A stretch of 64,000 nucleotides of DNA, from NCBI GenBank assembly GCA_026874595.1, contig CM049312.1:77411429-77475428 (forward strand), given 5' to 3'. The notes under the pieces were generated by a model. The model was not told the DNA's origin, searched no databases, and worked only from the letters and a program-made list of their open reading frames with translations. Each line of letters opens with the position of its first letter. Position 1 is the stretch's first letter. The position numbers and the translations under genes were made by a program. This stretch comes from Sipunculus nudus (taxonomy: Eukaryota; Annelida; Sipuncula; Golfingiida; Sipunculidae). Below, in pieces: positions 2,030 through 62,900 of the stretch.

Positions 2030-2087
<58 letters not shown>

Positions 2088-3652
2088 TTATATGTATAGT
2101 TATACTTATAACAGTAATAACACTGACACATCATTATATTTTCATCTTTTATTAATAATGTGAAATAATCTGATGTATTTTCAGATCCAGAAACTCATTT
2201 TCTAAATGTTGGGTGAAGATTAACAGTGACTGAATTCAGAATTGCTGTTTTGCCCAGACACCATGCATGCAGGCATTGGAAATGAAGACAGTCATCAGGC
2301 AACAATATTCACTACAGACTCGTTTCATCAATTTCTTAGAGTCAGGTATCCATGACACTGTACTTCCAGAGTACTTTTCAGCATATTTTATTATAAACCT
2401 GACTGTCCAGGTTGGATGGACCCAGACACCAAAACTATATTGAAAATCATGCTTTTTTTTCTAAGTCTGACATAATCAGAGCATATCAGATATGTCTCCC
2501 TCACAATTTGGTCTTTAATAACATATCAGGGGTATTAGATATTAGCACTAAGTAAATAGTGCCTCAGATGTAGAAAAGTGAGATAAATTTAGAATAATTG
2601 CAGAATGATATTTGATTTTTCACAGTGGCCACTGTCAGGTATACCGCACTAGATAATGGGATAGTTATAGGGCTCTGAAATATTATTTTTTAGTGATAAG
2701 GTCCTGTAACTTTGAATTCTGATAGCGCTTTCATGCCATTATAGTTTGCTTTCATGTAAATAGGGGGCAAAAAAAATTGTGTATCTTCACAAAAACCTGT
2801 CTTTACAATGTGGGTGATAATACAGGCTGATCGCTGCCACAAAATTGTGCCTGAACTGATGTTCAGAGTCTTTTCAGCTTATTCAAGTACTATATTCTTT
2901 ATTTCCAGGCTGTTTTTATGAGAAAAACTTGGTTTTGGGAAGCGGATTCCTGACAGGTAAGAAACATGAACTGTCACTCTATCTTCATACCATAACAAGA
3001 CTGGATTACAATTCTAGGGCTAATTTCAATAGGTAAACAACACTTTTTGGTGCCAGATTTGTGTCGGCATTTCACTGGGAGTGGTGCGGATGACTTTTAG
3101 GGTGAATGACCGTATATTTGGGGGGGGGGGGGGCAGAATGATAAGGGAACAGGGGAACAGGTGGGGGGGGGGGGTAGAAGAAAGGAAATTTTCTACTTTT
3201 GGTTCATGACTTGGTATACACACACACACATATATATGTAAATATATAATTATTTATTTATTTATAAACCCCCATTTGTTTGCCCCCCATTTGTTTGCCA
3301 AATTTGATGTTGCCAAATATCTTGACATACCATGTTTCTGTATATCATGTTTTATTTTTACATTGATTTTGTGCATGTTGACTCATTGCAAAAAAAAAAA
3401 ACATGGTGTAGTTAAAATGTGTCATTTGGTGAATTTAATGGCCTCAATGAATAAAAAACAATGGTATGTGGACAGTATGTGCAGTATTGTATAACAGCAG
3501 GCTCGAATAATTTCCCATGATTAGCATTTTCCCTATTTGACAGCATGGATTAACTGTCACCAGTAATTGAGTGTGTGTATATAAATTTATTTATATATAT
3601 ATATATAAATATATGCATATATATATATATGTTCATATGTATATTGTTTGTA

Positions 3653-3704
<52 letters not shown>

Positions 3705-5271
3705 TTATATGTATAGTTATACTTATAACAGTAATAACACTGACACATCATTATATTTTCATCTTTTATTAATAATGTGAAATAATCTGATGTATTTTCA
3801 GATCCAGAAACTCATTTTCTAAATGTTGGGTGAAGATTAACAGTGACTGAATTCAGAATTGCTGTTTTGCCCAGACACCATGCATGCAGGCATTGGAAAT
3901 GAAGACAGTCATCAGGCAACAATATTCACTACAGACTCGTTTCATCAATTTCTTAGAGTCAGGTATCCATGACACTGTACTTCCAGAGTACTTTTCAGCA
4001 TATTTTATTATAAACCTGACTGTCCAGGTTGGATGGACCCAGACACCAAAACTATATTGAAAATCATGCTTTTTTTTCTAAGTCTGACATAATCAGAGCA
4101 TATCAGATATGTCTCCCTCACAATTTGGTCTTTAATAACATATCAGGGGTATTAGATATTAGCACTAAGTAAATAGTGCCTCAGATGTAGAAAAGTGAGA
4201 TAAATTTAGAATAATTGCAGAATGATATTTGATTTTTCACAGTGGCCACTGTCAGGTATACCGCACTAGATAATGGGATAGTTATAGGGCTCTGAAATAT
4301 TATTTTTTAGTGATAAGGTCCTGTAACTTTGAATTCTGATAGCGCTTTCATGCCATTATAGTTTGCTTTCATGTAAATAGGGGGCAAAAAAAATTGTGTA
4401 TCTTCACAAAAACCTGTCTTTACAATGTGGGTGATAATACAGGCTGATCGCTGCCACAAAATTGTGCCTGAACTGATGTTCAGAGTCTTTTCAGCTTATT
4501 CAAGTACTATATTCTTTATTTCCAGGCTGTTTTTATGAGAAAAACTTGGTTTTGGGAAGCGGATTCCTGACAGGTAAGAAACATGAACTGTCACTCTATC
4601 TTCATACCATAACAAGACTGGATTACAATTCTAGGGCTAATTTCAATAGGTAAACAACACTTTTTGGTGCCAGATTTGTGTCGGCATTTCACTGGGAGTG
4701 GTGCGGATGACTTTTAGGGTGAATGACCGTATATTTGGGGGGGGGGGGGGCAGAATGATAAGGGAACAGGGGAACAGGTGGGGGGGGGGGGGGGGTAGAA
4801 GAAAGGAAATTTTCTACTTTTGGTTCATGACTTGGTATACACACACACACATATATATGTAAATATATAATTATTTATTTATTTATAAACCCCCATTTGT
4901 TTGCCCCCCATTTGTTTGCCAAATTTGATGTTGCCAAATATCTTGACATACCATGTTTCTGTATATCATGTTTTATTTTTACATTGATTTTGTGCATGTT
5001 GACTCATTGCAAAAAAAAAAAACATGGTGTAGTTAAAATGTGTCATTTGGTGAATTTAATGGCCTCAATGAATAAAAAACAATGGTATGTGGACAGTATG
5101 TGCAGTATTGTATAACAGCAGGCTCGAATAATTTCCCATGATTAGCATTTTCCCTATTTGACAGCATGGATTAACTGTCACCAGTAATTGAGTGTGTGTA
5201 TATAAATTTATTTATATATATATATATAAATATATGCATATATATATATGTTCATATGTATATTGTTTGTA

Positions 5272-5335
<64 letters not shown>

Positions 5336-6035
5336 TTATATGTATAGTTATACTTATAACAGTAATAACACTGACACATCATTATATTTTCATCTTTTAT
5401 TAATAATGTGAAATAATCTGATGTATTTTCAGATCCAGAAACTCATTTTCTAAATGTTGGGTGAAGATTAACAGTGACTGAATTCAGAATTGCTGTTTTG
5501 CCCAGACACCATGCATGCAGGCATTGGAAATGAAGACAGTCATCAGGCAACAATATTCACTACAGACTCGTTTCATCAATTTCTTAGAGTCAGGTATCCA
5601 TGACACTGTACTTCCAGAGTACTTTTCAGCATATTTTATTATAAACCTGACTGTCCAGGTTGGATGGACCCAGACACCAAAACTATATTGAAAATCATGC
5701 TTTTTTTTCTAAGTCTGACATAATCAGAGCATATCAGATATGTCTCCCTCACAATTTGGTCTTTAATAACATATCAGGGGTATTAGATATTAGCACTAAG
5801 TAAATAGTGCCTCAGATGTAGAAAAGTGAGATAAATTTAGAATAATTGCAGAATGATATTTGATTTTTCACAGTGGCCACTGTCAGGTATACCGCACTAG
5901 ATAATGGGATAGTTATAGGGCTCTGAAATATTATTTTTTAGTGATAAGGTCCTGTAACTTTGAATTCTGATAGCGCTTTCATGCCATTATAGTTTGCTTT
6001 CATGTAAATAGGGGGCAAAAAAAATTGTGTATCTT
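1..6035. repeat. 1.62 kb tandem repeat array, about 3.7 copies
   Basis: The same landmark (CACATATATATGTAAA) recurs at 1, 1605, 3227 and 4848, so the unit is 1604-1622 bp. The array runs off the left edge of the window. The last copy stops abruptly at 6035, after 'gtgtatctt', where unrelated sequence begins. Copies are nearly identical apart from (TA)n, poly-A and poly-G tract lengths and a few point changes. Each full unit holds a (TA)n microsatellite, two G-runs and a 48 bp exon-like segment (see separate entry). Such high identity suggests recent amplification or an assembly expansion. No long reading frame is present; short frames through the TA tracts are not genes. Confidence 0.95.
2909..2956 (+). 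other. Exon-like segment repeated inside the 1.62 kb unit
   Basis: A 48 bp segment is preceded by a pyrimidine-rich tract ending in 'atttccag' and followed by 'gtaagaa', so both splice-site contexts are good. The same segment lies at 1289-1336 and 4526-4573. One frame is open and would encode CFYEKNLVLGSGFLT plus split end codons. The length is a multiple of three, so repeated inclusion would keep frame. I do not recognise the peptide and no flanking exon is convincing, so this may be chance. Confidence 0.25.
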
Positions 6036-6438: not shown

Positions 6439-7053
6439 TTAAAGAGGCCCAAACCTCAGGTGTTTTATAGATGTTATATAGGGAAAATAAATACAGCCAC
6501 GTGTCCTCAAGTGAAGCGGGTCGGCCTTCGGTAGGCTCTCTAACCACGATAGAACACCTTCGACATGAACAAATGCCTCTGAAGCTGTGGGTGGGGGCTT
6601 CACGGGGGCTGATGTGTCTTCCTCATTATCAGATGTCTCGGGAGCAGCTTCTTGAGTGACTGACTGCACAATCTCCTCGTCTGTCAGCATTGCAGCAGTT
6701 GGTAGATCACCATCACAGTGGAGCCAGTCAGCAACTATCAGTTCACTGTTGTCCGAGTCCACCGCCTTGGCAACTGAGCTGACCTGAATGTCTGTCGGTG
6801 ATTCCACCTCATCCGCATCAGCTGGGGGCTGAGCACCAGCAGGAGATTTAAGCTCCAGAAAAAGGGAATTCTTCCAGCACTTGTGGATTGTAGACTGTCT
6901 CAGGTCATTCCAGGCATCACCTAACAGGTTGATGGCATCACGCAAGTTGAAACCGCGCATCCGTTCTATGATGGACAAGCTGTTGTAGACGCAGTCTGCA
7001 AGCAAGGATGACAGCACAGGCGCTTGAATCCCTATTTGTAATAAAGTCTTCAT
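6439..7053 (-). pseudogene. pogo/Tigger-type DDE transposase, C-terminal remnant
   Basis: The 204-residue minus-strand frame contains FNLRDAINLLGDAWNDL followed by STIHKCWKNSLF. This matches the conserved region after the DDE domain in pogo/Tigger and jerky-like transposases, where a helix 'DAI..iaqAW..v...TI.kCWkk' is usual. An acidic, Pro/Ala-rich tail with LTDEEIVQSV follows, also typical. The catalytic DDE core and DNA-binding domain are missing: the frame meets a stop just upstream of the first Met, next to a hairpin and a repeat boundary. It is therefore a truncated transposon relic rather than a host gene, although the 200-codon open frame suggests it is not very old. A domesticated fragment is a less likely alternative. 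Confidence 0.7.
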
Positions 7054-7097
7054 ATCCCCAGTGTTCTTAAAAATACTACGAAAGAATCAGTTAAAAA

Positions 7098-20172: not shown

Positions 20173-20496
20173 TTACGCGACCATTCCTTTCGCAAATTTT
20201 TTCAGTTTTTCTAAATTTAAATTTAACACAAGTTGGACATTTGGTTCTTTACCAGTCCTGTTTTGCCAGTCGACCACCATCTGACCCCTGGTCAGTTCCC
20301 CACTCAGCTCCACGTCACAGAACACTAGTTGACTCTCCAAAATAATGGACTCGTCCAATCCTACGGCAACTGCTGATTGGTCACAGAGAAAAAATTGAAC
20401 ATTCCTCGCTTTATGTCTCTTCATAATGTTTGACATGATTTCCTTCAGAAGACGAGCTCTTTTGTTTCCGACAGCAACCAGACTGTGAAAGATGTC
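20173..20496 (-). CDS. Nucleoside hydrolase A, coding exon 6
   Basis: Acceptor 'tcgttttccag', 324 bp to a TAA stop. It starts DIFHSLVAVGNKRARLL, contains FLCDQSAVAVGLDESII and DVELSGELTRGQMVVDW, and ends with the C-terminal strand and helix VQLVLNLNLEKLKKF. Confidence 0.9.
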   Translation of the reverse strand, partial: DIFHSLVAVGNKRARLLKEIMSNIMKRHKARNVQFFLCDQSAVAVGLDESIILESQLVFCDVELSGELTRGQMVVDWQNRTGKEPNVQLVLNLNLEKLKKFAKGMVA

Positions 20497-23400
20497 CTGG
20501 AAAACGAAATCACAGCTGCGTTACAAGATATCTCCATTGTTTTCGCCGCCTAAATAGAAAATCTAAGAAGAGCAGGGCTGAAAAGACCGGTAAAATGTTG
20601 GCACCCATCCCCCACCTCGCCGTCTCCTGTGATTAACCATATTATGCAATAAGAAGATTATGGGTCATTCTTAAAGTAAGATAAAACACAGGCCTGCAAC
20701 GCACAAGTTCAGCCACTTATTTCGCAATAAAACCTATCATTTCTTGTGACATAAAAAAACAAAGTCCCCACCCCCATCTTGGCTCGATCCCTCGATATTG
20801 CAAGTACCATTTTAAGTCTACTACTGCCTCCCCCATTCTCTCCCATAAATGTTTGGCTTTGCCGCATAAGTTATTCGTCACAGATTGCACGATAAGAATA
20901 TTGACTCGTTCTGAACAGGAACACCTTTTAACACGTACCCATCCATATCGTACCCTCTCATATACCACCTCCCACGTGACCAGCTGGATTGTGCAAGTCA
21001 TTCGGTGCAGAGTCAGACGAGCTGCCTCAGGATCGGCGTAGAAATTGAACTCGGCTGCTGTGCTAATGTTTCCCTTTCCTAGAATTAAAGTCATTTGATA
21101 TAATAAGCGCCCTATGCGCCCGACTTTGTCAAATCGCCTATACGTGAATGAACTTTAATGCAAATGATGTCGTGCAATAGCCGACAGCCAGTAATTTCAA
21201 ATTTGAGCCATGTATTCGTAGTCTTAATTTGAACAAGAATATTCGATTGATATGATCATTTATGACTGAAAGACATTACCACTTTTGAAATCAGCAGATT
21301 TAGAGGTTCTACAAAGTCATTAGGGGCCGCTTTATAATGGAAGGGCGCTCATTAGGTTTGACACAGTGATGCATATTGTTCAAAATACAAATATTTTTTT
21401 AGAATAACAAATAATTTACTGTGGCTGAAAACTCTTGCCCTTGGATTCCCGATACGTATCTGGATTTCCGATCCGGATCATCTTCAGTTTTTTTTTTAAA
21501 AAAAAAACGTTACTTATATAAATTTTTTAAATGGAAAATGTCCTCCCTTCGCTAATAGTGTCAGTTCCAGTAAATGGGGGCTTTTGAAACTGACCGTAAT
21601 TAGCGTATATACCTTTTTACACTGGGGGCGAATCCAGAGGAGGTAAGGAGGCTAAATCCCTTACTAGAACTTTTCAATTTTTTAAAGCTAAACCCTCCCC
21701 CTTTATGTGTTTTTGCATATTTGTTTGGATTTTATTCCATCGGTGACAACTGTACCTCGTCCCCTTCTTGAATTCCTAGATCGGCCTTCTTTAAAGGAGT
21801 TTTGAGGATATTTCAGTAATGTGGTTCACATGAATAAATTGGCTATTTCCATTTACAGTCCAGTCGAGCAATTGCTATATTTCGCCTGGATCAGTTTGAT
21901 AGAAAAAGAAAGTTTATACTGGAAAATAAAGGCCACAGGCCAAATGTTCCTACAATACAATCAACATTTAGAAGTCTTATTATACATTATCAGTTGAATA
22001 CGATGATTCCGAGTGAATCTTCTGGGGTGCGGGAAAAATGAAATGCAATGAAAATGGCTGCATGCTCCAACATTAATAAACTATAATTTACGTTAGTGAA
22101 ACTCGACTGTTGTCAGCATCACCTCCCTGACCACACATCAGAAATGCTCGTTTTGGGTCGTAATTATTCGAGAACGATGCCAAGAGTGACCTAAGAGGGT
22201 TCATTTTCATATTTTCCATAATCGGGAGAAATTTCACATTATTTCGCCAATCATGGCGCAAGTGAACTCGGCCCGTAGAAACCCGGCTGGCACAAACACG
22301 GCCGAATTTAATCGGACCTGTCCCAAAGCAAGAAAAAGTAATATATTATTTCTACTGATGCTTTAACGGGCAATCCATAAATATTGAATTGTTAATGGTT
22401 TGTTTGTTTACTATGAACAAAGTAAGCTGTGTTTTAGGAAATATATTAAACAGGCCTACATAGCCATTCTCAAAACAAAATAGGTGATCTCATAGTTACG
22501 AATAGTTACGTAACTGAATACATCCGCGATTATTTCTTTTAAAATGTTTGGTGATATAAAATGGATGATAGAACCCATCTGTTTGGTGACTCAGGTCGCT
22601 AAAACGTGAGATATATAGAACCATGGAAGATGCCACTCACACATGTTGACCCGGAGTTAATTATTTTTCCTCCTTGTGAGGTGTTGTCCAATTTATTATA
22701 CAAGCACACGTTATTTATAACATGGGCAGATCCAGGATTTATGAAGAGGAGTTGTCCATCCAAGCAGGACTCATGACAAAGCCTTAAAAATGTCCACAGA
22801 TCCGGAAAAGGGGTGTCCAAGACGCAAAAATTGTAACCCTTGAAAATAGGAAGAGGCGGCTGAAACAGGTCCGAACCCCTGGACCCCCCCACCTCCGATC
22901 CACTTCTGTATATTGGTCAGTTACACAAGTCATTCACAACCATAATTAATATCTACATTGTTCAATAGCTTAGCTATAGAAAATGCAACCCCATGCAAAT
23001 ATTTAAGTTCTTATTCCCGATCCGATTACTTGGCGAGAACTACTCGTACTCGGGTACTCCAGTACTCCAGTACTCCAATAAATATTGTTACCATGGATGT
23101 TGCCGCCCATGATGACGCATCTTTTGAGCTTCTTGCCAAGGTCAGGGTCAAGTTGGAGAGCGGTAGCCACGTTGGTCAATGGCGCGAGAGCTATCAGAGT
23201 CACCTCTCCTGTTAAAGTATACAAAATCGACAAATAAGGTCTAGGTCAATAAAAAAAAGTAAAAATAAAATGCACATTCGTCACCTGTGGCTATTACGCT
23301 ATTTATTAATCATTTTGCCAAATTAGCGGCATTGGAGATCTAGCGTAGAAACGGAGAGAGATAAAATATATAAAATATCAACAAATTAAATTTCTCATTG

Positions 23401-34559: not shown

Positions 34560-34860
34560 TGAACTGGATAATGAAAACTGTGGCATTAACATCTGAAAGG
34601 TTAGAATGCCAAACTTTACACTTTGCATTCCTGGTCGTCGTTCATATCTCGGCTTCCTGGGGAGCATACACCCAGCACACGTCAACATGGGCGCAATAAG
34701 GTTATCTAGTCTACATGTCGCCTGGCTTACATCCATGACCTGTACCCAATGACTCCTTGGTGGAAAGAGCGCAGCCTGTTGCAAAAGACTAAGCGGCAGT
34801 CTTAGCTAGGAAAGCGGTCTGAGTTGGACTCGAACCGACAACCATACGCTCAGTTTTGCA
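34560..34860 (-). repeat. Possible tRNA-derived SINE, minus strand
   Basis: The reverse strand carries a good pol III B-box-like sequence (GGTTCGAGTCC near 34834-34844). A body of about 280 bp with no coding potential follows. The A-box is not clear. The head side abuts an (ATTT)n tract. Confidence 0.35.
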
Positions 34861-40700: not shown

Positions 40701-43166
40701 CTTTAAGGTATATTGTATAATAATATGATAAATATAATATAAAATATAATAAATAGAAAACTTAGAAAATGTTCAACTTAGAAAATCATTTGTGAACATG
40801 TAGTAAGTATTCTTTATATAAATCAGTGTAATCTATATATTCCGGGCCTGCTTTGAGGTTCACCTCCTTATGGTAATGAACGTACCCATCCCTGCGTTTC
40901 TGTGGACACCTTCATTACTGGGCCGAGGGTTTATAATATTTGAATATTAATTTACAATCTAGACGAAACTTTGCGTGACCTCTCGTGTCAAGATGTCTCG
41001 TTTCATATCCTTCTCCTTATATTGGTACCAGTGGAAGCGGGACACTACGAAATGCTTTAAAAGTAATATGTAAGGCGATTTTGAACGAATAATGGCATAT
41101 TAGGCATACACAGTAAGAAAAAAAGTTTGGTTAATGATCAGATATGCTAAAACGACAGTTAGGCGGAGGCCTTACAAGGCTTATTATATCACCCCCCGGC
41201 CCCTCCCGCCCCCCCCCCCCCACACACATAGTGACAAGTGACTTTGGTATGCCCATCCCGTCAACAAGACCGCTCCGTTTACACATGATAATATTTATCC
41301 TAATGTAAAAAAAAAATAAATAAAAATAAATAATAAAAGTATGTTTATCAGGTAATTTTTCAAAAGAAATAAATGTGACAGGATCGATATTTTGTACCTT
41401 TTTCATAACCTTTCTTTCGATGAAAAGTTCATATAGTCAGTAGACAACATAATTATAACAGACATAACAGAAAAAATCATAGCAAAACGAAATTTTATCC
41501 TTTAATCATTAATTTTCTTACAAGAAAATCTTTAAAGATTTACTGAAAATCAAATTGATTTATATTAATGCGTGGGGTGCGCGGTACTTCAGTAAAAAAA
41601 AAACATTTTTTATTTATTTTTAGAGGCCTTACCCGTTTCTTTTTAGTTTGTCCGGAAGGCTTTGGGAACTGGTTTCGTCCAATGTCAGGGGACGCTGCGC
41701 CCTCATGTTACAAGTTGTCAAGTGAGTCGTTGACGTGGCAGAGAGCTCGGGATTATTGTCTGTCCAGAAACGCTGATCTCATCAGTATCGAAACACCACA
41801 GGAGAACTCTCACATCACTATGATAATCATGGACAAAGGTAACCCATAAATACATATAAAGATTTTATAAATTTATGTTTGTATCTGGGTGTGTGCCACT
41901 GCGCGTTTCACTGAATGCTTATATCGTGCCTTTATATGACATTCTGACTACAGTGGAGTTTGAGGGTAAGCTGTCAGCGCAGTTTTGGATGCTTTGTTTG
42001 AGGTAGCCGGTACCAACCAATCACTGCTGCAATATATATATATATATATATATATTACATACATACATACATACATATATATTGTTCAGTCGCACGGTGC
42101 TAATATGATGCCTACCCACCAGTTCCACCACCTGGGCAACTAAAGTTTCCCTTAAGCCGGTTTAGTTTAGACTATAAACGTGCTGTGACTATCATGGCGC
42201 TCGGCCGGCGCCATCACTGAAGGATCCAAGGCCTCCGGTGCTTCATAACTAGAGACACTGGAGCAGAGACACTTAAAATTACATGTTGATTGTCACAGAC
42301 GCATGGAAGAACATTTTTTTAATGTAGCTATCAAAGTTAGGCTGGCATTCCATGTCACTTTCAAGTATTGAGAGCCAGAAGAACCAGAAGTATGTGAACT
42401 CTGAATATTTTTGCTTCTTTAGCCTGGTATTGGTAAAAATTTTTGTAAGTGGACATACTTAGCCCCCTCCTCCCGCCATAAGTACAAAACCATCGATTTC
42501 AATATTTTTCCTTTTATTTCTCTTTCTTTACGACTTTCTGTTTTCTGAGCTCGAAATATGACTTATTTTAAAAAGCTGAAATTTGGGCACACTATCAGTC
42601 CTAGGTCACAGATTTTTTCTCCTGATATAAATTTTAACCTTGACTTTATTCCCAAAGTCGTGCACTCCATAGCCGATTCCCATTATCGCTCATTTGCGCT
42701 CTGGGGCGATTGCATACATTTAGTTTTCATCTACATTTATCTGTTGGCTGATAGCGGACTGAATATTTGGTAACATTTACGGTCTGGGCTGGTGCGGGCT
42801 GCAATTAAAATGTTTGGTGTAGGTATGGAGCGGCGGGGAGGCTCGAGGGTTTTCCAAATGCGGGGCAGGGCGGGTTTTCTCACCTGTGGGGCTGGGCTTC
42901 CAATGGTCATTCGGCCGTTGCATGCATCTAATTGTAATGCTTTTTTTTTAACAGCAGCCTGGACGTCTGGTTCCGATGTACAACAGGAAGGGCACTACAA
43001 GTGGCTGGCAACAGGAGCAGATGTCGTCTACTTTTCCTGGAAAACACACCAGCCTGATGACCACAAAGGCGTGGAAGATTTTATAGAGGTGTCTGGAATA
43101 TACTGGAATGATGTGCCCTGCTTAAAGGAGTTACATGCTCTCTGTGAGATTCAGGCAAAACTCTAG
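35538..43166 (+). CDS. Secreted PAN/apple-like and C-type lectin domain protein, six coding exons
   Basis: Coding exons: 35538-35592, 36030-36293, 37895-38017, 39632-39754, 41647-41838, 42955-43166; total 969 bp, 322 residues. Every junction is phase 1 with GT-AG sites. Exon 1 plus the start of exon 2 gives a signal peptide (MGLKPEVNLIMFLVASISVC.), so the product is probably secreted. Exon 2 (residues 19-106) is Cys-rich with QCMFECNARLSCTAVN, like a PAN/apple domain. Exons 3-4 form a Thr/Pro-rich and basic linker. Exons 5-6 (189-322) form a C-type lectin domain: SCYK, TWQRARDYC, ADLISIE, then QPDD and YWNDVPC, ending ALCEIQAKL. QPD and WND are the calcium/sugar-binding motifs; QPD usually goes with galactose-type ligands. 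The Cys normally after 'ED' is Phe (VEDF), so one conserved disulfide seems lost. A role in innate recognition is family inference. An in-frame upstream ATG at 35514 would add eight residues. Confidence 0.85.
35620..35920 (+). repeat. Interspersed repeat family R4, copy 3
   Basis: Shares 'ggcttataaggggtgatgag', 'gtttgtgggtgga', 'tgtccgtttcttgtgctt', 'atgggtgattt' and 'cccattatagctca' with the copy at 26840-27175. It lies in lectin intron 1. Confidence 0.55.
36030..36293 (+). CDS. Lectin gene, coding exon 2 (PAN/apple-like)
   Basis: Acceptor 'aaccgttacag', 264 bp, phase 1 to 1. Two donors lie 9 bp apart: after 36284 (gtgagcc) and after 36293 (gtgagag). Both keep frame and differ by three residues. 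Cysteines occur in QCMFEC, LSCT, RSCQ and PCDGC. Confidence 0.82.
37415..37810 (+). mobile_element. 'GATAAATTGACG' element, best-bounded copy (hAT-like MITE)
   Basis: Flanks ATGATATG (37407-37414) and ATGACATG (37811-37818) match at 7 of 8 positions, a hAT-sized target duplication. Ends CAGGGGCGTCAAT and, reversed, TAGTGTTGTCAAT are imperfect inverted repeats. A (TA)n microsatellite occupies 37662-37713. It lies in lectin intron 2. No coding capacity. Confidence 0.7.
37895..38017 (+). CDS. Lectin gene, coding exon 3 (linker)
   Basis: Acceptor 'cttctatgtag' with a second in-frame AG 9 bp later (exon from 37904); donor 'gtaatatc'; phase 1 to 1. Encodes a hydrophilic Thr/Pro-rich linker including RTPHKYVYNKTELEETGYD, with a possible N-glycosylation site NKT. 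Confidence 0.72.
39340..39410 (+). repeat. G-rich microsatellite
   Basis: GGT/G-rich run with very long G homopolymers; likely length-variable and error-prone in assembly. It lies in lectin intron 3. Confidence 0.8.
39632..39754 (+). CDS. Lectin gene, coding exon 4 (linker)
   Basis: Acceptor 'gtatttaaaaacag', donor 'gtaaaact', 123 bp, phase 1 to 1, the same length as exon 3. Encodes ATRPPKCELNLESLQPKFD then GGRKGMSRFVKMLNTR. No domain recognised. Confidence 0.7.
40196..40662 (+). mobile_element. TTAA-flanked MITE in lectin intron 4 (best copy)
   Basis: TTAA at 40196-40199 and 40659-40662. Ends TTAAAGGGGCCAGTCAC and, reversed, TTAAAGGTGCCCATTCAC form inverted repeats. 467 bp, no open reading frame. 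It shares its core with 29588-30048 and, reversed, with 25100-25550. Confidence 0.8.
41647..41838 (+). CDS. Lectin gene, coding exon 5 (N-terminal half of C-type lectin domain)
   Basis: Acceptor 'gtttctttttag', donor 'gtaaccca', 192 bp, phase 1 to 1. Encodes VCPEGFGNWF, SCYKLS, the helix LTWQRARDYCLSRNADLISI and ETPQENSHI. Confidence 0.9.
42031..42079. repeat. (TA)n / (CATA)n microsatellite
   Basis: TA dinucleotide run followed by ACAT tetranucleotides, in lectin intron 5. Confidence 0.8.
42470..42705 (+). repeat. Interspersed repeat family R4, copy 4
   Basis: Contains 'aaaagctgaaatttgggcac', 'gtcctaggtcacagatt', 'gactttattcccaaag' and 'cccattatcgctca', closely matching 27030-27170. It lies in lectin intron 5. 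Confidence 0.65.
42955..43166 (+). CDS. Lectin gene, coding exon 6 (C-terminal half of C-type lectin domain)
   Basis: Acceptor after a T-rich tract ending 'taacag', 212 bp to a TAG stop. Encodes AAWTSGSD, GHYKWLATGAD, THQPDDHKGVEDF and IYWNDVPCLKELHALCEIQ. QPD and WND are intact, while the Cys after 'ED' is replaced by Phe. Confidence 0.9.
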
Positions 43167-46156: not shown

Positions 46157-46393
46157 ATGTTAACAACCTTAAACACACCATTTTGGCGTTACAGGTTTAA
46201 AAGAATGCCTTTTGAATTTCTAGTGCACAAAAGGTGTTTCAGAAAAAGGGTCAGTCAACTGTTAGAAGGAATAACAGGCACTGTAAACTATGTGGATGAC
46301 ATTTTGTATTATGCCAGAACAGAACAGGAGCATGATCAAATATTACAACAGGTACTGGGAACATGTAAAGAAAACATCAAACTGAACAAGTAG
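46157..46393 (+). pseudogene. Gypsy reverse transcriptase fragment
   Basis: Open 78-codon piece carrying RFKRMPFEF, a palm-region motif, and YVDDILYY with the two catalytic aspartates. It ends at a stop; the same frame continues after it with GIIKYLGHIIT. Confidence 0.8.
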
Positions 46394-46621
46394 AAATATC
46401 AGATAAAACCGGGTATCATAAAGTATTTAGGGCATATTATCACAGGAGAAGGGATGTCACAAGATCTATCCAAGGTTAAGCTATTGTCAATATGGAAAGA
46501 TCAACAGATAAACAGGGTGTACACAGGTTACTTGGTTTGGTTAACCAGATTTATTTCCAATATCTCAGATTTGACTGACAGAACCACTTAGAAGTGTGAT
46601 GAAAAAGGATGTAGAATTTCA

Positions 46622-46856
46622 GTGGGAAAACAAGATCAAAGTACACATGTTTTGAAATATTATAATATTGATGATGAAGTAATAAAATCATGTGATGCAA
46701 GCAAAACAGGATTAGGTGCTGTGTTGTTACAGCAAGGGCAACCTGTGTCCTGTGCTGCTTACAGACCTCTTACACAGACAGAACAAAATTATGCACAAAT
46801 AGAAAAAGAATGTTTATTAGTAGTTCTTGCATGTGAAAGAATTCACAAGTACACTT
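46622..46856 (+). pseudogene. Gypsy RNase H fragment, interrupted
   Basis: Carries DASKTGLGAVLLQQGQ, YAQIEKECLLVVLACE and HKYT, then stops matching at 46857 where a small LTR element is inserted. The match resumes at 47277 with YGKKVQIENDHKPLE. Confidence 0.85.
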
Positions 46857-46998
46857 TGTCACGGGGTGACATAAAAGCGGACCGAACTGTCTCGCTAGTG
46901 AAGCATGCTTTTTGGTACGCCGGACTTGTGCGCCACCGACATGGGTTCGAATTACGGATCGGCCGATATTTTCCCCTGAACAATTTGTCTTCGTAACA
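46857..46998 (+). repeat. LTR1 of the TRIM
   Basis: 142 bp, TGTCACGGGGTGAC...GTAACA. Compared with LTR2 it lacks about 13 bp holding the A-box-like sequence; its B-box-like sequence is nearly consensus. Confidence 0.78.
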
Positions 46999-47114
46999 AA
47001 TGGGGGCTCATCCAACGTGACGGTAAACATTTTGTCCCAGGGAATAAGCTCACCAGAGTGTGACTCCTGGGATAATTAGTCTTGTTCTGATAGCAGAACG
47101 CTCTTAAGAGGGGC

Positions 47115-47272
47115 TGTTTTACGGGGTGACATAATAGCGGACCGGACTGTCTCGCTAGAGAAGCATGCTTTTCTAGCGAATCGGTTGGTACGCCGGACTT
47201 GTGCGCCACCGACTTGTTTTCCAATCCCGGATCGGCCCAGTATTTTCCCGAAAAAAAGTTGTCTTCGTAACA
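47115..47272 (+). repeat. LTR2 of the TRIM
   Basis: 158 bp, TGTTTTACGGGGTGAC...GTAACA. The A-box-like sequence is intact, while the B-box region reads GTTTTCCAATCC and is altered. Confidence 0.78.
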
Positions 47273-47792
47273 ACTTATGGAAAGAAAGTCCAAATTGAAA
47301 ATGATCACAAACCATTAGAAACTATATTTAGAAAACCTCTATGGATTTCCCCTCCAAGAATACAGAGAATGCTCATTAGATTACAGAAACTAGACATTTA
47401 ATTCACCTATAGAAAAGGGAAAGAACTGTACATTGCTGACACTTGTAGAGCACCACAACATAACACAGATAAAACAACAACAGTTTTTGAACAAGGATTA
47501 TATTTTTTGTACATTGTGTACACAGGAACAGACCAGTTACACCAGAGAGAAATGAAAAGATCAGAGAAGCTACAGCAAAAGATGCTGAAATGCAATCACT
47601 CATACACATGATACAAAAGGGCTGGCCAAACTCAGTGAGTAAATGTAAAGATGTCAAGCGAGTTTCACATTTAGAAATGAACTATCTGTAAGTGATGGAC
47701 TTGTAATGAAAGGGACTAGAATAATTATACCAAAGAATATGAGAGGAGATATTTTAACACAATTACACACATGACACTGGGGTATAGGAAGA

Positions 47793-48245
47793 ATGAGACG
47801 TAGAGCACGTGATACTGCCTTCTGGCCAGGTATCTCTAAACACATTGAAAGAATGGTAGAAAACTATAAACCTTGTTGGAAATTTCTGTACAAAATAAAA
47901 AAAAAGATAATGGTACATGAAGTACCAGAGAATCCATTTGAGAAAGTAGGGACAGATCTATTCCAGTACAGAGGTCATGAGTATTTGATAGTTGCTGATT
48001 ATTATTCAAAATTTTGGGATGTAGCCAGGTTAACCGATACAAATGCAGCTACAGTCATAAGAAAGACAAAAGCTATATTTGCAAGATTTGGGATACCAAC
48101 CAAAGTAGAGGGTGACAATGGTCCTCAGTTTTCTTCAGATGAATATAACAAACTTGCCAAAGAATGGAAGTTTAAACATTGCACTAGTTCACATATATGT
48201 ATGGAAAGTACATGGTTTTGCAGAACATATGATGCAGACAGTTAA
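47793..48245 (+). pseudogene. Gypsy integrase fragment
   Basis: 150-codon open piece: MRRRARDTAFWPGISKHIE is the usual region after the zinc-binding domain. VGTDLFQYRGHEYLIVADYY carries the first catalytic Asp and GDNGPQFSS the second. The CX2C of the zinc finger is damaged (KPCWKF). The third acidic residue lies beyond, out of frame. Confidence 0.85.
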
Positions 48246-50458: not shown

Positions 50459-50535
50459 GGCTACTGCACAGTTCTGGCAAAAAGCTTCAGCAGTTTGTCC
50501 AAGTCAATATTCAACACAAGTTGGACATTTGGCTG

Positions 50536-50784
50536 TTAACCAGTCTTATTTTGCCAGTCGACCACCATCTGACCTCTGGTCAGTTCCCCACTCAACTCCA
50601 CGTCACAGTACACGTGTTGACTTTCCGAAATAATGGACTCGTCCAATCCTACGGCGACAGCTGATTGGTCACAGAGATAATAAGGAACATTCCTCGCTTT
50701 GTCTCTCTTCGTGATGTCTCCTTGAATGTTCTTCAGGAATCTTGCGCGTTTGTTTCCCACAGCAACAAGATTATCAAAAACATC
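50536..50784 (-). CDS. Nucleoside hydrolase B, terminal exon with early TAA
   Basis: Acceptor 'tattgttgtag', 249 bp to TAA. Starts DVFDNLVAVGNKRARFL and ends VVDWQNKTG-stop. If the TAA is ignored, the exon runs to TAG at 50461 and measures 324 bp, exactly as in A. Confidence 0.88.
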   Translation of the reverse strand, partial: DVFDNLVAVGNKRARFLKNIQGDITKRDKARNVPYYLCDQSAVAVGLDESIISESQHVYCDVELSGELTRGQMVVDWQNKTG

Positions 50785-50951
50785 CTACAACAATATGTTG
50801 TGACATCAGATTTCTATTACAAAGGAAATATTGATGTAAAACTCTACTTATTTAAATTTGTATCTGATATTGTTCACCTTAAACATAAGGTTATAATAAC
50901 CTTATTTTTATTATTTTAATAGGTAAACCATGGTTTGCATGGTTTTGCAAC

Positions 50952-50982
<31 letters not shown>

Positions 50983-53900
50983 TTTCGTTAAAAATGTCTG
51001 GCATCGGATATGCCAAAGTAACCAAGATCTCCCCTATATCCCCGATTTTAGGTATATTCTAATATATTTGGCACCTATAGTCTATTTGTGCAATGTGTAT
51101 GAATAATGCGCAGTTGGAATTCGGGATTGGGACACTTCTAAAACTTGAATTGCTGCTTTAGTCACAGACTTAAAATAATACTTTATACCCATGAGTTAAT
51201 AAATGGATAAAGATCACTTCTGTCACCAAATAACTGGCTCTGGTAGGTTTTTGTAAACATTTTAATGTGTTTGTAATAATTATATATAAGTTGTCATATC
51301 TTAATTAATAATACATTGATAATATGTATATACTTTATGACTGTTTAAAGAGTTGTATGAATAGCCATGCTGGTTCACTGCTCTTTCAGCTTTGTTCATT
51401 CTTGCAGCTTTTCTCAGCTCTCCGAGGAGCATTACAACCCAAGCAGTCATGACTGGTAATTCATTCCACATTATTAACTGCCGCCATTGACCAGTACCCA
51501 TTCACGTCTGGGGGAGGAGAGTACACCCTTGTGGTGAAGACTTTTGCCAGAAGTCGGAATGGGATTCGAACTCCCATCCTCGTATCCTAAGATCAGCGCC
51601 CTAACCAATGACCTACCACGCCCCACATACTGACATGTCAGTACCAGGCTGCCTTTCCATACAAGCGGGTATTTGCCCGTGCGGGACCATCGCGGATCCC
51701 CGCATGCGGAGAGCACCTTTCCATATGTGCGGGTCCCCGAATGCGGATGACCCATTTATTGTGGTAAACGCATGCACTAATAATCATATACGAGAGTATA
51801 TACCCCCCCCCCCGGCTTTTACTTAATTGTAATACATTCAGACAATAAATGGTATATATATGTGTGTGCATGTGTGTTTATAAAAAAGTTGTCCCAACTT
51901 TGATTACCCTCTCACGCCTGAGAGTCACCCCCCCCCCCCTTGAAGATAAATTGACGTCAATGGCTACTGCACAATTCTGCCTATCCTCATATCCTAAAAT
52001 CAGCACATTTTCATATGTGTGCGTGTCCCCGAATGCGGATGAGTCATTTATTGCGGTAAACGCATACACTAATAATAACAATTTCTAAAAGTTTAGTGTA
52101 ACTTTTTAATTCAATATTTAGTCTAAACATTTATACAAGTGAGGCAAGGCTTGAGACGGGTATCTCACCAGCCAGGCTTAGATGAAGGCAGATCTACTGC
52201 CACACGTTACCTAGAGTTGGCTTCAGGTCCGTACCTCGATGAAAACTTGTCTTTTATTCTTTTATTTAGCTTCAAAGCACTGTCAGCTCTTTTACCTTTT
52301 CCAAAGACAAGGGCAAATACCAGCATCTTATATACCCCAAGTGGCCCCGCAGAAATCCAACACTGCTGGATCGGAATACGGTACCCGAGGGGTCCCTCCT
52401 GCACTTTAATCTTTTAAGGGTGCTTTCATGGCACGAAGGTTTGAGGGCACGAAGGCACATACCTTTCTGCCCCAACTGTTATGGCATGAATGCACATTTT
52501 CCTTCCATAGCACTGTTAGAGTATGAAGGTAGTCTTACTGTCCAAACAGTTACATTCACACATTCACAAATCTGCATCAAACTGGAAAGAACACCACCAT
52601 TTACTTTGTGTCAAGATATGGGCTTGAAACCCCAGATGAAGAGGTTTGATAAATAAAGAATTCTTGATGCTGCATACAAATGACTTTAGAAACAATTCTA
52701 TAGAAACACACTAACAAGCTTTACACTCAAGCATATTATATTTCAGTACAATTAAGGATAACATGATGCAACTTTTCCACTGGAAGCTTTCTCGTTTGAT
52801 TATATATGGCAAACTGTTGGCTGCCCACATGGTTACATAAATGTTAATGAGAGTGCTGATAGCGCCCTAAATGAGGACACCTTGGAACATATTTGCTGTA
52901 TTCCTGGGTTAGACAATAATTCAATAAATATTAATATTAAACCAATACAGAAGCAGAAGATTTTGCTAACAGCCATTTATTTAATTGTTTAAGACAAAAC
53001 CTTACAAGATTCCCACAACCCCTCTGTTCATAATGTGATCTATTTGACCAGGGGTAAATAAGAGTCATTCGTTATTTTTATATGTCCAGAGAACCTAAAT
53101 TCAAACAATAAAATTGGGTGTTACAGGAAAAGATAAGGTGCAAAATATAGGATATTAAATATATCAGGCTACATGAGATGCACTGATTAAAAGAATGTTT
53201 GTTTTAAGATAAACTCCTGAGTTACTCCAAACTTCAACTTCAGAAAAACTTCAGCAAGCCTGCTGGTTTCATGTGACCAAAGTTTGCAACAAAACTAATT
53301 TGTTGATACAACCTGATAACAGGATCTTACCCATTTGCTCCTATAAAATATTAGTTGTACTGAAAGTGTAATAAATATTAGGAACATTAAGTTTATAAAT
53401 ATGCCGTATAGTATCCTTACAGAAAGGAAGGGGTATTGCTAGACTTGGAAGTATGTTAGGGTTAGAAGGTGTACTTTTATACCCCCAACAGTAAGGCAAA
53501 GAAGGGGCGCTGTTACGGCAGGAAGTGTGAAAGAGCATGAATGTGTACCTGCCTTAAGGGTTGCCTTAATCTTCTGGCATGATAAACTAGAAATATTACG
53601 AGCTAAGAATCTGTATAACAGATAATTGCAAAATTTCATGGGTTGTTCTTAGGGTGTTACGCAAACCCTGTGGCAAATTTCATAAAATCCTTTCAAGACG
53701 GTTTGCCTTAAGTTGCCAACATTCAAATTAACCAATCATCAAAAACATAATACCTTTAGCCATCTGGCAGATATTTATCAAACACGTACCCAGCCATATG
53801 GCAGCCGCTCGCGTACCACCTCTATTGTGACCAGCTGTATGGGGCAGGTCAATCGGTGCAGTGTAAGTCGAGCCGCCACCGGGTCTGCGTAGAAATTAAA

Positions 53901-56900
53901 CTCTCCTGTTGCTGTAATGTTTCCCTTACCTGAGAGGAGAATCAAACTGAATTTAGATTTATCAGATATTTTGCTGACTTTTTTTGTTAGAGGTAACCGC
54001 CTCCATTTTTTATGCTGTCTGTGTAATACATCTGCAGAATTACATTCCGGTTTCGAACTACATGACAGGTCAGTAGCATACGCTTTCTCTCAATTTATAT
54101 CGTGGTGTTGACCAGGCCCGGTGACTACTGCACCTGCGGACCTTGGGTGTGTAATCTCCCCCATTGCTGGGTCATGCCACCGTGGAACCCCCGAAAGTGC
54201 CGTGGGGCACGACTTTCCCATTAGTCCTGTGCTCTACCCTAATACAACAGAAGCCGGGACATTATTAACTGAATGAGAATGAAGGTAATCATGACTACGA
54301 TCAGATTTACTATGGTTGGCCTCATATTCGTGAATATGAAATTCGCTATATTTCAGTTATTTGGTGTTCAATGATGTTTTCTGTTTCGCGATTTAAACAG
54401 AAACATTTTTCTGTAAGTATAAGATTACATCATTTTTTTTTAAATTTTAAAAATGATTATTATCCGATTCTAGTATTCATTTACTGAACTAATCGCAGTA
54501 CTGTCGGAGGCTAGCTAATCACCTTGAACATTTACTCATATTTTAACCCGTGCTTCACGGTCTGGTCTTAATTTCAAGTATATAGGTTTTATATTGGAGT
54601 CCTTATTCCCGATACGATTACTCGGTGAGAACAAATCATACTCGAGCCCTCGATTAAGTACTAGCTGTTACCATGGATATTGCCGCCCATGATGACGCAT
54701 CTTTTGAGCTTCTTGCCAAGGTCAGGGTCAAGTTGGAGAGCTGTAGCCACGTTGGTCAATGGCGCGAGAGCTATCAGAGTCACTTCCCCTGATAAAACAT
54801 ACACAAATATGGATGAATACTCTTATCATGCTTTGATCTATAATTTTTTTCCCCTAACTTTGATCGTTTAAGAATATTTATTCATATATCTTATTTACCC
54901 ATGATACTCCATGTAATCATTTTCACTTTCTTATTGTCAGTGATTCCTAGCTGTTATTTCCTAATAAAATGATTTTATTAGATGAATTTTACGTGTAATA
55001 ATGACAAGTAAGGGAGTGATGCATTGGCATGCAACTTAGTGGGCTAGAGTTCAACTCTGGAAACGCAACTGGTCTAAGAATTTGGGGCACACTACTAGAT
55101 GCGATAAAACATCAACTTGTGGCAAATAATGTCATTCAATTATAATAATCTGAGAAAATTGTTTTGGTATAATTCACAAATTTATTGGGGAAATATTAGA
55201 TGTTGGAGAGGGGGGTTGGGTGTATAATCCTATATCCGAGTGTACAAAATAAAACCATTATTTTAATAGCGGTATATCCTGAATTCCAATATTGGACTTA
55301 CGACATCAGGGTTTTAGTATGTACGCAAATTGAGCCGTTACTTTTTTAAGGGACTGTTCAGGGTATGTTAAGTGTTTTTTTTTTTTAATTTTTATTTTCA
55401 AACATGTTTTACCAGGATAACCTATTCAGCTCATTTGTTGTTTTTCAATAGGGTCCTCGGTAAAGTTAGTTTCACATAAAATAAATAAAATATACACCAT
55501 ACAGATTAGACATGTCATAATGTTATATCGAATACATAATTCAGTATACAGTATAAAAGAATTAAAAAAAAGTTATGCTGTAAGACACATAGTTGTGACA
55601 TAGAAGACATTGAAAATATAAAAAGGACATATCTATATCTCATGTAATTGATAAAAATGTAGGTTAATGGTAAATATACATGAATGATATAAAATTGTGC
55701 AATCGCATCAAAACTTTATATAGACGTTTATAATGGTCGTTATTTGAGGCAGACTTTAAAGAGAAAGGCAGCTGATTCCATTTATATGGACCAGCATAAA
55801 TAAAACTAGACTTAAAACGTTCACACCTGGGCATGGGTAAAATCAATTTATGGCTGTCAGAAGACCGTGTTTCTTATGGCATCCGTTGTAACCTAAGTAC
55901 ACAGGAATACCAAAGGAAAGTACTCTGAGGACAGTCTCAAGGTGGTTTGGTGGCCAACCTAGCACGTAGAAACCGAAGGAACGCTCTGAGGATGACCGCG
56001 CCCTCATCCGAAATTACAGAAGGATGTTGACAGGACAATATCACCCCTGAATACTGGTACTAACATGCCCGTAACAATCCCCACTGCTTACATTTTGAGA
56101 GAGAAAAATGAATGTACAATACGATAATCTACCAACCAAATATAAAGCTGACAACAGATTGGTGTAGTAACTGATTTACATGAATGTATAAATTGTGAAA
56201 CTGATAATATATCAACAAAATTAGTGCAGCAGGGATGACCAGGATTAGTGCCATCAATAAAAGAAAAGTGAATACTTCTGTGTCATCAGGTAACTTTCCC
56301 CAGGAACTTTAAAGATGAATTATTTAATCCCATTTTGTAAAAGCCTGGACTTGAATTTCAACATGCAAACTATAGACCAATCAGTAATTTAAAATTTTTT
56401 GTCAAAAGTTTTGGAGATAGCAATGCTGCTGAGGTTCAACAAACATCGTAACGAACATACTCTCATACCCAGCAATCAACCTGCGTATAGGCCGAATTAT
56501 TCCTGTGAAACTGCTTTACTGAAATTAACTTACGATATCTTAGTGGGAATCACTGAATCTTGCTAGATATGTAGAGTTTTAAATTGCCGAGCAAGAATCT
56601 GCACGAAGCTATAGTCTTAAAAAAGTGTCAAGCATTTACATCAGGGGCGGATCCAGGATTTAGGAAAAAAAGGGGGGGGTCCAACCCAGGAACACTAATG
56701 AAACACAAAAAAAGGTCACCAGGTCTGGAAAAGGGGGGGGGGGGGGGGTCCAGGCCGCAAAATTTTGTCTGAAGCCCTTAAAAAACGTTGTTTCTGATGA
56801 AAAAGGGGGGTCCGGACCCCCTGGACCCCCCTCTGGATCCGCTTCTGTACATTACTTTTTTGCTAGATATGTTAGAAAAGAGATTTGGTGTTTGTGTAAC

Positions 56901-59900: not shown

Positions 59901-62900
59901 CACGGCAAATCTACTTGGACACCTGAAATTAGCTCATTGTGACCAAGATAACATGATTTTAAGCACCCAGACGGCTCACAAGTTGTAAACATTTGGTCTA
60001 GAATATTCTAACATAATATTCAGGAGAGTCCTGGGCAAATGTCCTTGAAAACATAAAATTAGATCACTGTGACTTATTTTCTGCGAGCTAAAGGAAAAAA
60101 ACATGTTTTGAGCATCCTGTTGGTCTTTGAAACCTGAAACTAGGTCATAATGAACTAAATTTTGAGAGCGACTGGCTAAAACATGATTTGAAGCACCCAG
60201 ACAGTCAGACAGGACATAAAAATGTTACAGTTGGACCAGGCACCTTCTAATATGACATCCTTGGAGGTCCTCGGGAAATCTCCTGAATTCTGAAATTCGG
60301 TTACTGTGACCTATATTCTTTGAGATATGGGTAAAATACCAAATATTGAGCTTCCAGAAAGTCAGACAAGGCACAAATCTTAACTATTGAATCTAGAAAT
60401 GTCTTCCTTAATGTAATGGGAGGACGTTGTAATGTCTCCTTTGACATCCAAAATAAGGTCACTGTAAACTGTATTTTGTGAGCTATGTAAAAGAACATGA
60501 TTTGAGTACCCTGTAAGTCAGATGGACAGAAGTTGTAGCAGTTTGCCATAGAAATTTCTAATTAGCATTTTGGGAGTTCCTGGTAAAATCATCTTGGAAA
60601 CCTCAATAAGATCGTTGTTACCTATTTTCTAAGGATTGGGCAAAAAAAAATTCTTTGAGCTATGGGTATAATACCAAATTTTGAGCTCCCAGAAAGTCAG
60701 ACAGGGCACAAATCCTAACTGTTGGATCAACAAACGTCTTACTTAATGTAATGGGAGGACGTTGTAATGGCTCCTTTGACATCCAAAATAAGGTCACTGT
60801 AAACTATATTTTGTGAACTATGTAAAAGAACATGATTTGAGTACCATGTTAACCAGATGGACAGAAGTTGTAGCAGTTTGCCGTAGAAACTTTTAATTAG
60901 CATCTTGGGAGTTCCTGGTAAAATCATCTTGGAAACCTCAATAAGATCGTTGTTACCTATTTTCTAAGGACTCTGGGCAAAAAACAATTTGAGCACTCGG
61001 GAGGTCATTCCATCCATTGTTCAAGGTTCATCAACAAATATTTTTCACCAGATCATCACCTCAATAATTGATGCGTCAAATTTTGCTGAGCATCATGACA
61101 CATGGATCACTTGTTTTGTAGGGGCTACTAGTTACCGGTATCTACAGCGCTTCTGCTACCAACAACATAGCCATAACTTACGATATATACCGAACACACA
61201 CGACTAGCTACATATAAGAAAGCATTCTTGAGATTCACTAGAAAGCTGCTAGGCTACATAATGCTATACGGATGATAGTTTGGATGAACGTATTTAGATT
61301 AGGACTGATTGGTGTTTGTATCATTCCGAGGCAACTCTTGTACTGTTCACATCAATACTCTGGCACAATATGGAAGAGCTTATATAAGAACGTATGGAGT
61401 TGCTGATGTTATGACCTGGTATTGAGAGAGAAATGGCAGGGACAGATGCAGCGTTAGGATGTCAGGATTATATGCACATCTTCATCCTGTTGTACTTCCT
61501 AGTGCACATCTTCCTCCTCTTGCTGCCGCTGGACCTCCTCCTCATCCTGTACCTCCTTCATGACAATAAATGTACTGTTTGATTGAATGACGGCTGATCT
61601 TACCTCTCCCTGGCTGCTGCAAACTTCCTTTATGGTTGCAAGGATCACGTAAAATTGGGCTATGTAGACACAGAACTAACCCTTTGATGATGCACGATAC
61701 CCTGATATTATAACCGAAGAAACGTAATAAACGTAATTTTTTCGTAGCGCTAGGTAACAGCTTTGTAGCTGTAACGTAGCCCCCAAGTAATACGTTATAG
61801 CTGTATCGTCAGTACTTCTTGCTGCATCGTAAGTAATTTGGGTTATGTCCTAGTGCGTACGTCTTTATGATTCTTAGCAATTTCGGAATTGTTCTTATAA
61901 TACTGCTAAGGTCCTGCTTATGTAATTAATACCTTATCGTAGCCAGTTCTAAAGGATTCGTTGTACTTCGTGGCATTAACCAAATGATACAAACATGTGT
62001 ATTGCCTAGGGAGCACCACGTTGACCCCGACGTTATACCGACTAGTATACATTAAGCTTAAGACCTACCAGTAAGTTCCGAAAATTGTATAAGAAGCAAT
62101 TTTAAGAGCTGCATGTGACCTAACACATTTCAAAACACGTAGCAGCGAGAAAAAATTTTGAAGTCCACTCAAAACTATAATCGCTCACTCACGCTTCGCC
62201 AATAGTCTTCACGTTACGTGTGCGAACTACACAGAAGCGGATCATGACGACGAAGAGCCAAGAAGCCAAATTATTTCCAATTGTTACCGCATCTCGGGCC
62301 CTATTCCTGGAAGTGGGAATGCTCCTATATTAACTTACAGTAAAATAGGCCACTTACAGTTTTAATTAACCAACCATCCAACCTAACCTAGATTGCTTTC
62401 ATTGCCAAAATCAGTTCATAATTCATCTTATGCAAAGTTTCACACTTTATTATTTAAATTCCTCCTGAAATGAATTCAATTCTTACCTTTGTTTTCGTTA
62501 ATTAATCTAACCATAGCATTCACTGCGTGTTCTTTTTGTAGCAGTGTCATGTCGGGGTCAGAGGGCCATTGATAGTCACCCAGGCCGTCTTGACCGTGCA
62601 CAGAAGCATTCGTAAGTTTTCTATCTAATGGCTGGCTGCAACCCTGGTAAACTGGCGTCTGGAATAATAGATTACATAATTGGACATTTTAAGTTTAGCA
62701 CTGTGGTGATATGGTTAAAGATGATATGATTAAATTAACGTGAAGATGTGCAATAAGAGTTTCCTGATTTCTCTGAGTTGTTCTTTTAATGTTGTGGATG
62801 AACCGAATACATGATGGGAAGGCCAGTTTAAACAAATCTCTGCGGCTCTAGCCATTATGCCAGGTGGCGGCTACTCTATGGCGAAACTGATGATGGCACA

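What the first reader, a model, noticed from the sequence alone, without database searches (positions are those of the whole stretch)
46857..47272. Animal TRIM-like element whose LTRs carry a tRNA-like pol III promoter
Seen: TG...CA terminal repeats, primer-binding-like TGGGGGCTCATCC, purine tract, exact ACTT target duplication, non-coding interior. Also seen: an A-box-like motif in LTR2 and a B-box-like motif in LTR1. Known: plant Cassandra TRIMs carry a 5S rRNA-derived pol III promoter in their LTRs. Inferred: the intact ancestor had both boxes and could have been transcribed by pol III, a hybrid of SINE and LTR element. I do not know of a described animal family of this type.
Basis: partly seen in the sequence, partly recalled or inferred. 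Interest (0 to 1): 0.82.

Follow-up and report, generated by a model that had tools for sequence, protein, structure and literature searches.

The report
Degraded miniature LTR retrotransposon, probably Helenus
This is an old, broken copy of a tiny parasitic DNA element sitting inside a bigger dead one; elements of this layout with tRNA-like ends were already described in animals in 2024, so it is a fairly ordinary example.

Summary
A 416-bp element lies at 46857-47272 with TG...CA terminal repeats (142 and 158 bp, 16 mismatches in 142 aligned columns plus three indels), a 116-bp non-coding interior, a primer site 2 nt after LTR1 matching the tRNA-Pro complement at 12 of 13 bases, a short purine tract, and an exact ACTT duplication. 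It interrupts the RNase H domain of a degraded Gypsy-like pol gene; the Pfam profile breaks at positions 68|69 around it. So it is a TRIM, inserted by an LTR-element integrase.

The tRNA/pol III promoter is not significant in either LTR alone (59 and 364 of 1000 shuffles do as well; no Rfam or ARAGORN tRNA); only scoring both LTRs together stands out (1 of 1000). The supposed A box overlaps a hairpin arm. That no animal family is known is wrong: Kojima 2024 (PMC10886601) describes Helenus, TRIMs with tRNA-like LTRs, 4-bp duplications in animals and 51 bivalve families, tRNA-Pro among the bivalve primers. Most likely a decayed Helenus copy. The host genome could not be searched (11 attempts unanswered).

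The parts
46853..46856 (.). left target-site duplication ACTT
   Evidence: exact match with 47273-47276
46857..46998 (+). LTR1, 142 bp, TG...CA
   Evidence: aligned with LTR2, 126 of 142 columns identical, 3 indels
46944..46954 (+). B-box-like GGTTCGAATTA (2 mismatches to GGTTCGANTCC); not significant alone
46999..47114 (+). non-coding interior, 116 bp; predicted hairpins (z -1.92, 8 of 200 shuffles as good)
47001..47013 (+). [quoted passage not shown]
   Evidence: reference letters in PMC12217144 and PMC1769482
47106..47113 (+). short purine tract AAGAGGGG before LTR2
   Evidence: sequence, by eye
47115..47272 (+). LTR2, 158 bp, TG...CA, with a 13-nt stretch that LTR1 lacks
47152..47179 (+). 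28-bp near-perfect palindrome (hairpin) in LTR2; its right arm overlaps the A-box-like motif
   Evidence: I2, 94%; folding z -4.82, 0 of 200 shuffles, for 47145-47185, a stretch picked after seeing it
47174..47184 (+). A-box-like TAGCGAATCGG, LTR2 only
   Evidence: sequence; 6 of 8 specified bases of TRGCNNARNNGG by my own count
47273..47276 (.). right target-site duplication ACTT
46202..46856 (+). interrupted Gypsy-like pol, left side: RT fragment (below cut-off), a stretch without Pfam hit (46394-46591), RNase H up to profile position 68
   Evidence: Pfam RVT_1, RT_RNaseH_2, RT_RNaseH
47273..48245 (+). interrupted Gypsy-like pol, right side: RNase H from profile position 69 (E 0.0014, below cut-off), integrase zinc-binding and core at 47775-48245
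   Evidence: Pfam RT_RNaseH, Integrase_H2C2, rve

Best explanation
A decayed copy of a miniature, non-coding LTR retrotransposon (TRIM), most likely of the published Helenus group. Shown: two terminal repeats, a tRNA-Pro-type primer site, a short purine tract, a 4-bp target duplication and a precise insertion into a Gypsy-like pol gene. Inferred: an LTR-promoted RNA was packaged and copied by the enzymes of a Gypsy element, with tRNA-Pro priming the first strand and the purine tract the second, and then integrated. The tRNA-like part of the LTR may once have recruited pol III; in this copy neither LTR carries a convincing promoter.
For: LTRs, TG...CA, interior, ACTT duplication. Joining the flanks at one ACTT gives an open RNase H frame, and the RT_RNaseH profile ends at 68 on the left and starts at 69 on the right. 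Primer site, 1 mismatch in 13, 2 nt from LTR1. Length 416 (Helenus 311-1263 bp), duplication of 4 bp, tRNA-Pro among the primers, Gypsy as the superfamily sharing primer sites: all as reported for animal or bivalve Helenus. Either-LTR column scoring gives a full B box, and 1 of 1000 column shuffles reaches the total. GGTTC, the conserved box-B core of Helenus, is in LTR1. Against 24 phage T5 tRNAs, LTR1 matches tRNA-Thr(UGU) best, 16 of 500 shuffles as good; seven bivalve Helenus families are reported able to encode a tRNA-Thr.
Against: No tRNA family hit to either LTR in Rfam at E up to 10 and none by ARAGORN. LTR2 is no better than shuffles against tRNAs (133 of 500, best match tRNA-Tyr and outside the tRNA-like stretch) or boxes (364 of 1000); of 405 pieces of 158 bp of the window, 13 score at least as LTR1 and 62 at least as LTR2. 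Helenus box A is reported as TRGCY in most families; here it is TAGCG, and LTR2 has TTTTC in place of GGTTC. Kojima's figure aligns molluscan Helenus with tRNA-Lys, not tRNA-Thr (legend). Seven runs of T4 or more lie on the + strand (about 1.5 expected), three of them (46969, 47030, 47117) between LTR1's B box and the hairpin of LTR2, which would tend to stop pol III (recalled rule). Host species and other copies unknown.
Confidence: 0.68

Rival explanations
1. An ordinary TRIM with a pol II promoter; the A- and B-box-like motifs are chance, the A box being part of a hairpin arm.
For: Box pair not significant in either LTR; no Rfam or ARAGORN tRNA; the A-box-like motif overlaps the right arm of a 28-bp palindrome; T4 runs are above expectation; a TATA-like CATAAA lies at 46870 in LTR1, though LTR2 has CATAAT there.
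Against: Either-LTR column scoring 1 of 1000; LTR1 against tRNAs 16 of 500; the B box, when both LTRs are read together, is complete.
Confidence: 0.27
2. A dimer of a tRNA-derived SINE.
For: Two similar units with some tRNA-like motifs.
Against: Exact 4-bp duplication, TG...CA ends, primer site directly after unit 1, purine tract before unit 2, and the element ends in AACA, not in oligo-A (a run of seven A at 47251-47257 lies inside LTR2, not at its end).
Confidence: 0.03
3. A copy of biv-TRIM, the bivalve TRIM of Satovic et al. 2019.
For: Same kind of element; reported from bivalves.
Against: biv-TRIM repeats are 202-218 bp, interior 77-80 bp, with TGATCCCAAAGGAC in nearly all species and mostly GGGGAGA; here 142/158 bp, 116 bp, and neither motif is present (GGGGAGA looked for on the + strand only).
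Confidence: 0.02

Closest known systems
Helenus (Kojima 2024, PMC10886601), animal type
   Same: TRIM size, 4-bp target duplication, primer site for a tRNA 3' end (tRNA-Pro is among those of bivalves), Gypsy as likely partner, tRNA-like motifs in the LTRs
   Different: boxes are split between the two LTRs and weak here; box A is TAGCG, not TRGCY; no sequence comparison with published families was possible
Cassandra (plants)
   Same: TRIM with a pol III promoter in the LTRs (there 5S, here only proposed and tRNA-like)
   Different: Cassandra carries 5S rRNA sequence; no 5S hit here
Ajax (nemerteans)
   Same: animal TRIM with small-RNA-derived LTRs
   Different: 5S-derived, 5-bp duplications, tRNA-Leu primer
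biv-TRIM (bivalves)
   Same: TRIM
   Different: other lengths and interior motif; no unambiguous primer site reported

Membership tests
TRIM | under 1000 bp, two LTRs, non-coding interior | tested here: met
   416 bp, 142/116/158
TRIM | primer-binding site after LTR1 | tested here: met
   12 of 13 to the tRNA-Pro complement, 2 of 100 shuffled windows hold such a site anywhere
TRIM | polypurine tract before LTR2 | tested here: inconclusive
   AAGAGGGG plus C before LTR2, seen by eye, short, not tested against chance
TRIM | target-site duplication of LTR-integrase length | tested here: met
   ACTT, exact; RNase H profile split at 68|69
Helenus | tRNA-derived sequence in the LTRs with boxes A and B | tested here: inconclusive
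   LTR1 59 of 1000, LTR2 364 of 1000, both read together 1 of 1000; LTR1 16 of 500 and LTR2 133 of 500 against T5 tRNAs; no Rfam tRNA
Helenus | 4-bp target duplication in animals | tested here: met
Helenus | in bivalves, primer tRNA Lys, His, Ile, Pro, Glu or Ser | tested here: met
   tRNA-Pro type; that the host is a bivalve is not shown
Helenus | sequence similarity to a published Helenus consensus | not testable with these tools
Cassandra | 5S rRNA sequence in the LTRs | tested here: not met
   no Rfam 5S hit
biv-TRIM | repeats 202-218 bp, interior 77-80 bp with TGATCCCAAAGGAC | tested here: not met
SINE dimer | oligo-A or simple tail and variable longer duplications | tested here: not met
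   ends in AACA followed by the 4-bp duplication

The most novel reading that the evidence does not exclude
A Helenus lineage, not yet catalogued, whose LTR combines a tRNA-Thr-like pol III promoter with a near-perfect hairpin overlapping box A, so that promoter use and RNA folding are coupled, and whose T-runs make pol III yield a short tRNA-like RNA while the full-length RNA comes from another promoter.
Probability: 0.08. Interest if true: 0.5.

Novelty: new member of a known kind. Interest (0 to 1): 0.22.

Why it matters
Pol III-promoted LTR elements link SINE and LTR biology, and for Helenus the promoter has not been tested by experiment (Kojima says so). This copy adds an aged, nested example with a tRNA-Pro primer site, and one caution: it holds T4 runs that a pol III genomic transcript would have to cross. 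It does not open a new class.

Tried and rejected
SINE dimer and biv-TRIM were rejected on anatomy. Cassandra/Ajax-type 5S promoter: no 5S hit. Relation to the 1.62-kb tandem array at 43-6035 (its CAAACAAATGGGGG shares 13 bases with the LTR-end/primer junction): reading the first 3400 bases I saw AT-rich satellite-like sequence and no LTR of this kind; blastn shows no LTR there. Searches that found nothing: two LTR patterns in viral contigs, one in genome contigs (bacteria and archaea, so little expected), LTR letters in papers (1 paper, an unrelated psyllid assay). Phage DNA, distant mode: 27 records, E 5 in the 20 rows listed, chance. The 16-base primer-site pattern with up to 3 mismatches missed the site (0 matches), because bases 14-16 also differ; the 13-base form finds it (at up to 2 mismatches 26 of 100 shuffled windows have a hit, at up to 1 mismatch 2 of 100).

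Literature: the paper search (7 searches; for most only the listing was seen). PMC10886601 was read in parts 1, 2, 3, 4 and 6 of 6, plus passages; part 5 was not opened. PMC6934838: parts 1-2 of 5. PMC12217144 and PMC1769482: passages only. No supplement was opened.

Full report
What is there. The 416 bp at 46857-47272 are a complete small LTR element: LTR1 46857-46998, interior 46999-47114, LTR2 47115-47272. Both LTRs begin TG and end CA. They agree at 126 of 142 aligned columns (4 transitions, 12 transversions) with three indels, K2P 0.122, so the copy is old. A BLAST of the element against the window finds, besides itself, only the two LTRs matching each other and matches of 34 bp or less. 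The duplication ACTT is exact on both sides.

It was inserted by an LTR-type integrase. The flanks belong to a degraded Gypsy-like pol gene. Pfam RT_RNaseH covers profile positions 5-68 in the left flank (E 2e-12) and 69-104 in the right flank (E 0.0014, below the curated cut-off), so no residue is missing at the junction; integrase zinc-binding and core domains follow at 47775-48245, both above cut-off, and a fragment of reverse transcriptase (below cut-off) precedes at 46202-46393; the piece 46394-46591 has no hit. Joined at one ACTT, the flanks give one open frame through the RNase H region.

Primer site. TGGGGGCTCATCC starts two bases after LTR1. It matches the complement of the tRNA-Pro 3' end at 12 of 13 bases and at 13 of 18 over the longer stretch, so the match ends at base 13. 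It is the only site in 64 kb with at most one mismatch; 2 of 100 shuffled windows had one anywhere. A binomial estimate for at least 12 of 13 to any of 46 tRNAs (assumed number) at 5 offsets is 1.4e-4, or 1.4e-3 at a fixed place if TGG is taken as given. The tRNA-Pro letters were seen in a primer table for human tRNA-Pro-TGG (PMC12217144, passage) and in a statement on a murine leukaemia virus (PMC1769482, passage); no bivalve tRNA was available.

Is there a tRNA-like pol III promoter? Their weight is small. The best A+B pair at 35-65 nt spacing scores 14 of 18 in LTR1 (59 of 1000 dinucleotide shuffles reach it), 13 of 18 in LTR2 (364 of 1000) and 14 in the whole element (92 of 500). Of 405 adjoining 158-bp pieces of the window, 13 reach the score of LTR1 and 62 that of LTR2. 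If a column counts when either LTR has the base, the score is 16 and 1 of 1000 column shuffles reaches it (these keep the two-base columns but not the dinucleotides). Rfam has no tRNA hit in the region at E up to 10 nor any hit in the window at gathering scores; ARAGORN finds none. Against 24 tRNAs of phage T5 (bacterial-type, used because no animal tRNA set was on hand), LTR1 is best matched by tRNA-Thr(UGU), anticodon and T-arm in register, with 16 of 500 shuffles as good; LTR2 by tRNA-Tyr, mostly outside the tRNA-like stretch, 133 of 500; the reverse strands 313 and 318 of 500. Summed over all 24, LTR1 22 of 300, LTR2 57 of 300, reverse strands 95 and 192 of 300. This leans to a tRNA-Thr-like ancestor but does not prove it; several scores were tried and none was corrected for that.

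Against pol III use in this copy: the A-box-like motif lies mostly in a 13-nt stretch absent from LTR1 and overlaps one arm of a 28-bp palindrome that folds well (47145-47185, z -4.82, 0 of 200 shuffles, stretch chosen after seeing it); LTR1 as a whole folds no better than its shuffles (z 0.41, 125 of 200). The + strand holds seven runs of four or more T (two in LTR1, one in the interior, four in LTR2) where composition predicts about 1.5. That T4 stops pol III is recalled, as is that T4 alone can be leaky in animals. One run, TATTTTCCC, sits at the same place downstream of the B box in both LTRs. A pol III start in LTR1 would most simply give a short tRNA-like RNA.

What is known. Kojima 2024 (PMC10886601; parts 1-4 and 6 of 6 read) named Helenus: TRIMs whose LTRs hold a tRNA-like sequence, in fungi, one plant and six animal phyla; animal ones make 4-bp duplications and share primer-site similarity only with Gypsy elements; 51 families were found in pteriomorph bivalves, with tRNA-Lys, His, Ile, Pro, Glu or Ser primers, and Gypsy-13_CGi is a tRNA-Pro user. 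[quoted passage not shown] here LTR2 has TAGCG and CGG, and LTR1 has GGTTC. The present element fits in length, duplication, primer and partner superfamily; the defining tRNA part is inconclusive in a copy this decayed.

Verdict. A TRIM: about 0.95. Helenus-type: about 0.7. A functional pol III promoter in this copy: unlikely. Novelty is that of one more, decayed member; whether its family is already catalogued could not be tested.

Noticed in passing
43-6035: Tandem array of a ~1.62-kb unit, three full copies and a partial one (4890-6035), the others 98.4-99.3% identical to the copy at 1647-3268, with TA-rich stretches.
   Followed up: partly
20173-20520 (-), 20717-21154 (-), 53778-54089 (-): Pieces of inosine-uridine preferring nucleoside hydrolase (Pfam IU_nuc_hydro; the 53.8-kb one just below cut-off); 20203-20498 is 83% identical to 50491-50786, suggesting a duplicated gene.
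   Followed up: partly
41559-41849 (+), 42774-43166 (+): C-type lectin domain pieces, at (22.6 of 22.6 bits) and below (19.3) the Pfam cut-off.
   Followed up: no
34826-34836 (-): The only perfect GGTTCGANTCC in the window; by eye I recognise no A box before it and ARAGORN finds no tRNA.
   Followed up: partly
60315-60989: Two head-to-tail copies of a 335-bp unit, 92% matching.
   Followed up: no
6439-7086 (-): Open frame resembling the end of a DDE transposase (Pfam DDE_1, E 0.005, below cut-off).
   Followed up: no
46999-47114: The interior is predicted to fold into hairpins (z -1.92, 8 of 200 shuffles as good); could be a packaging signal, untested.
   Followed up: no
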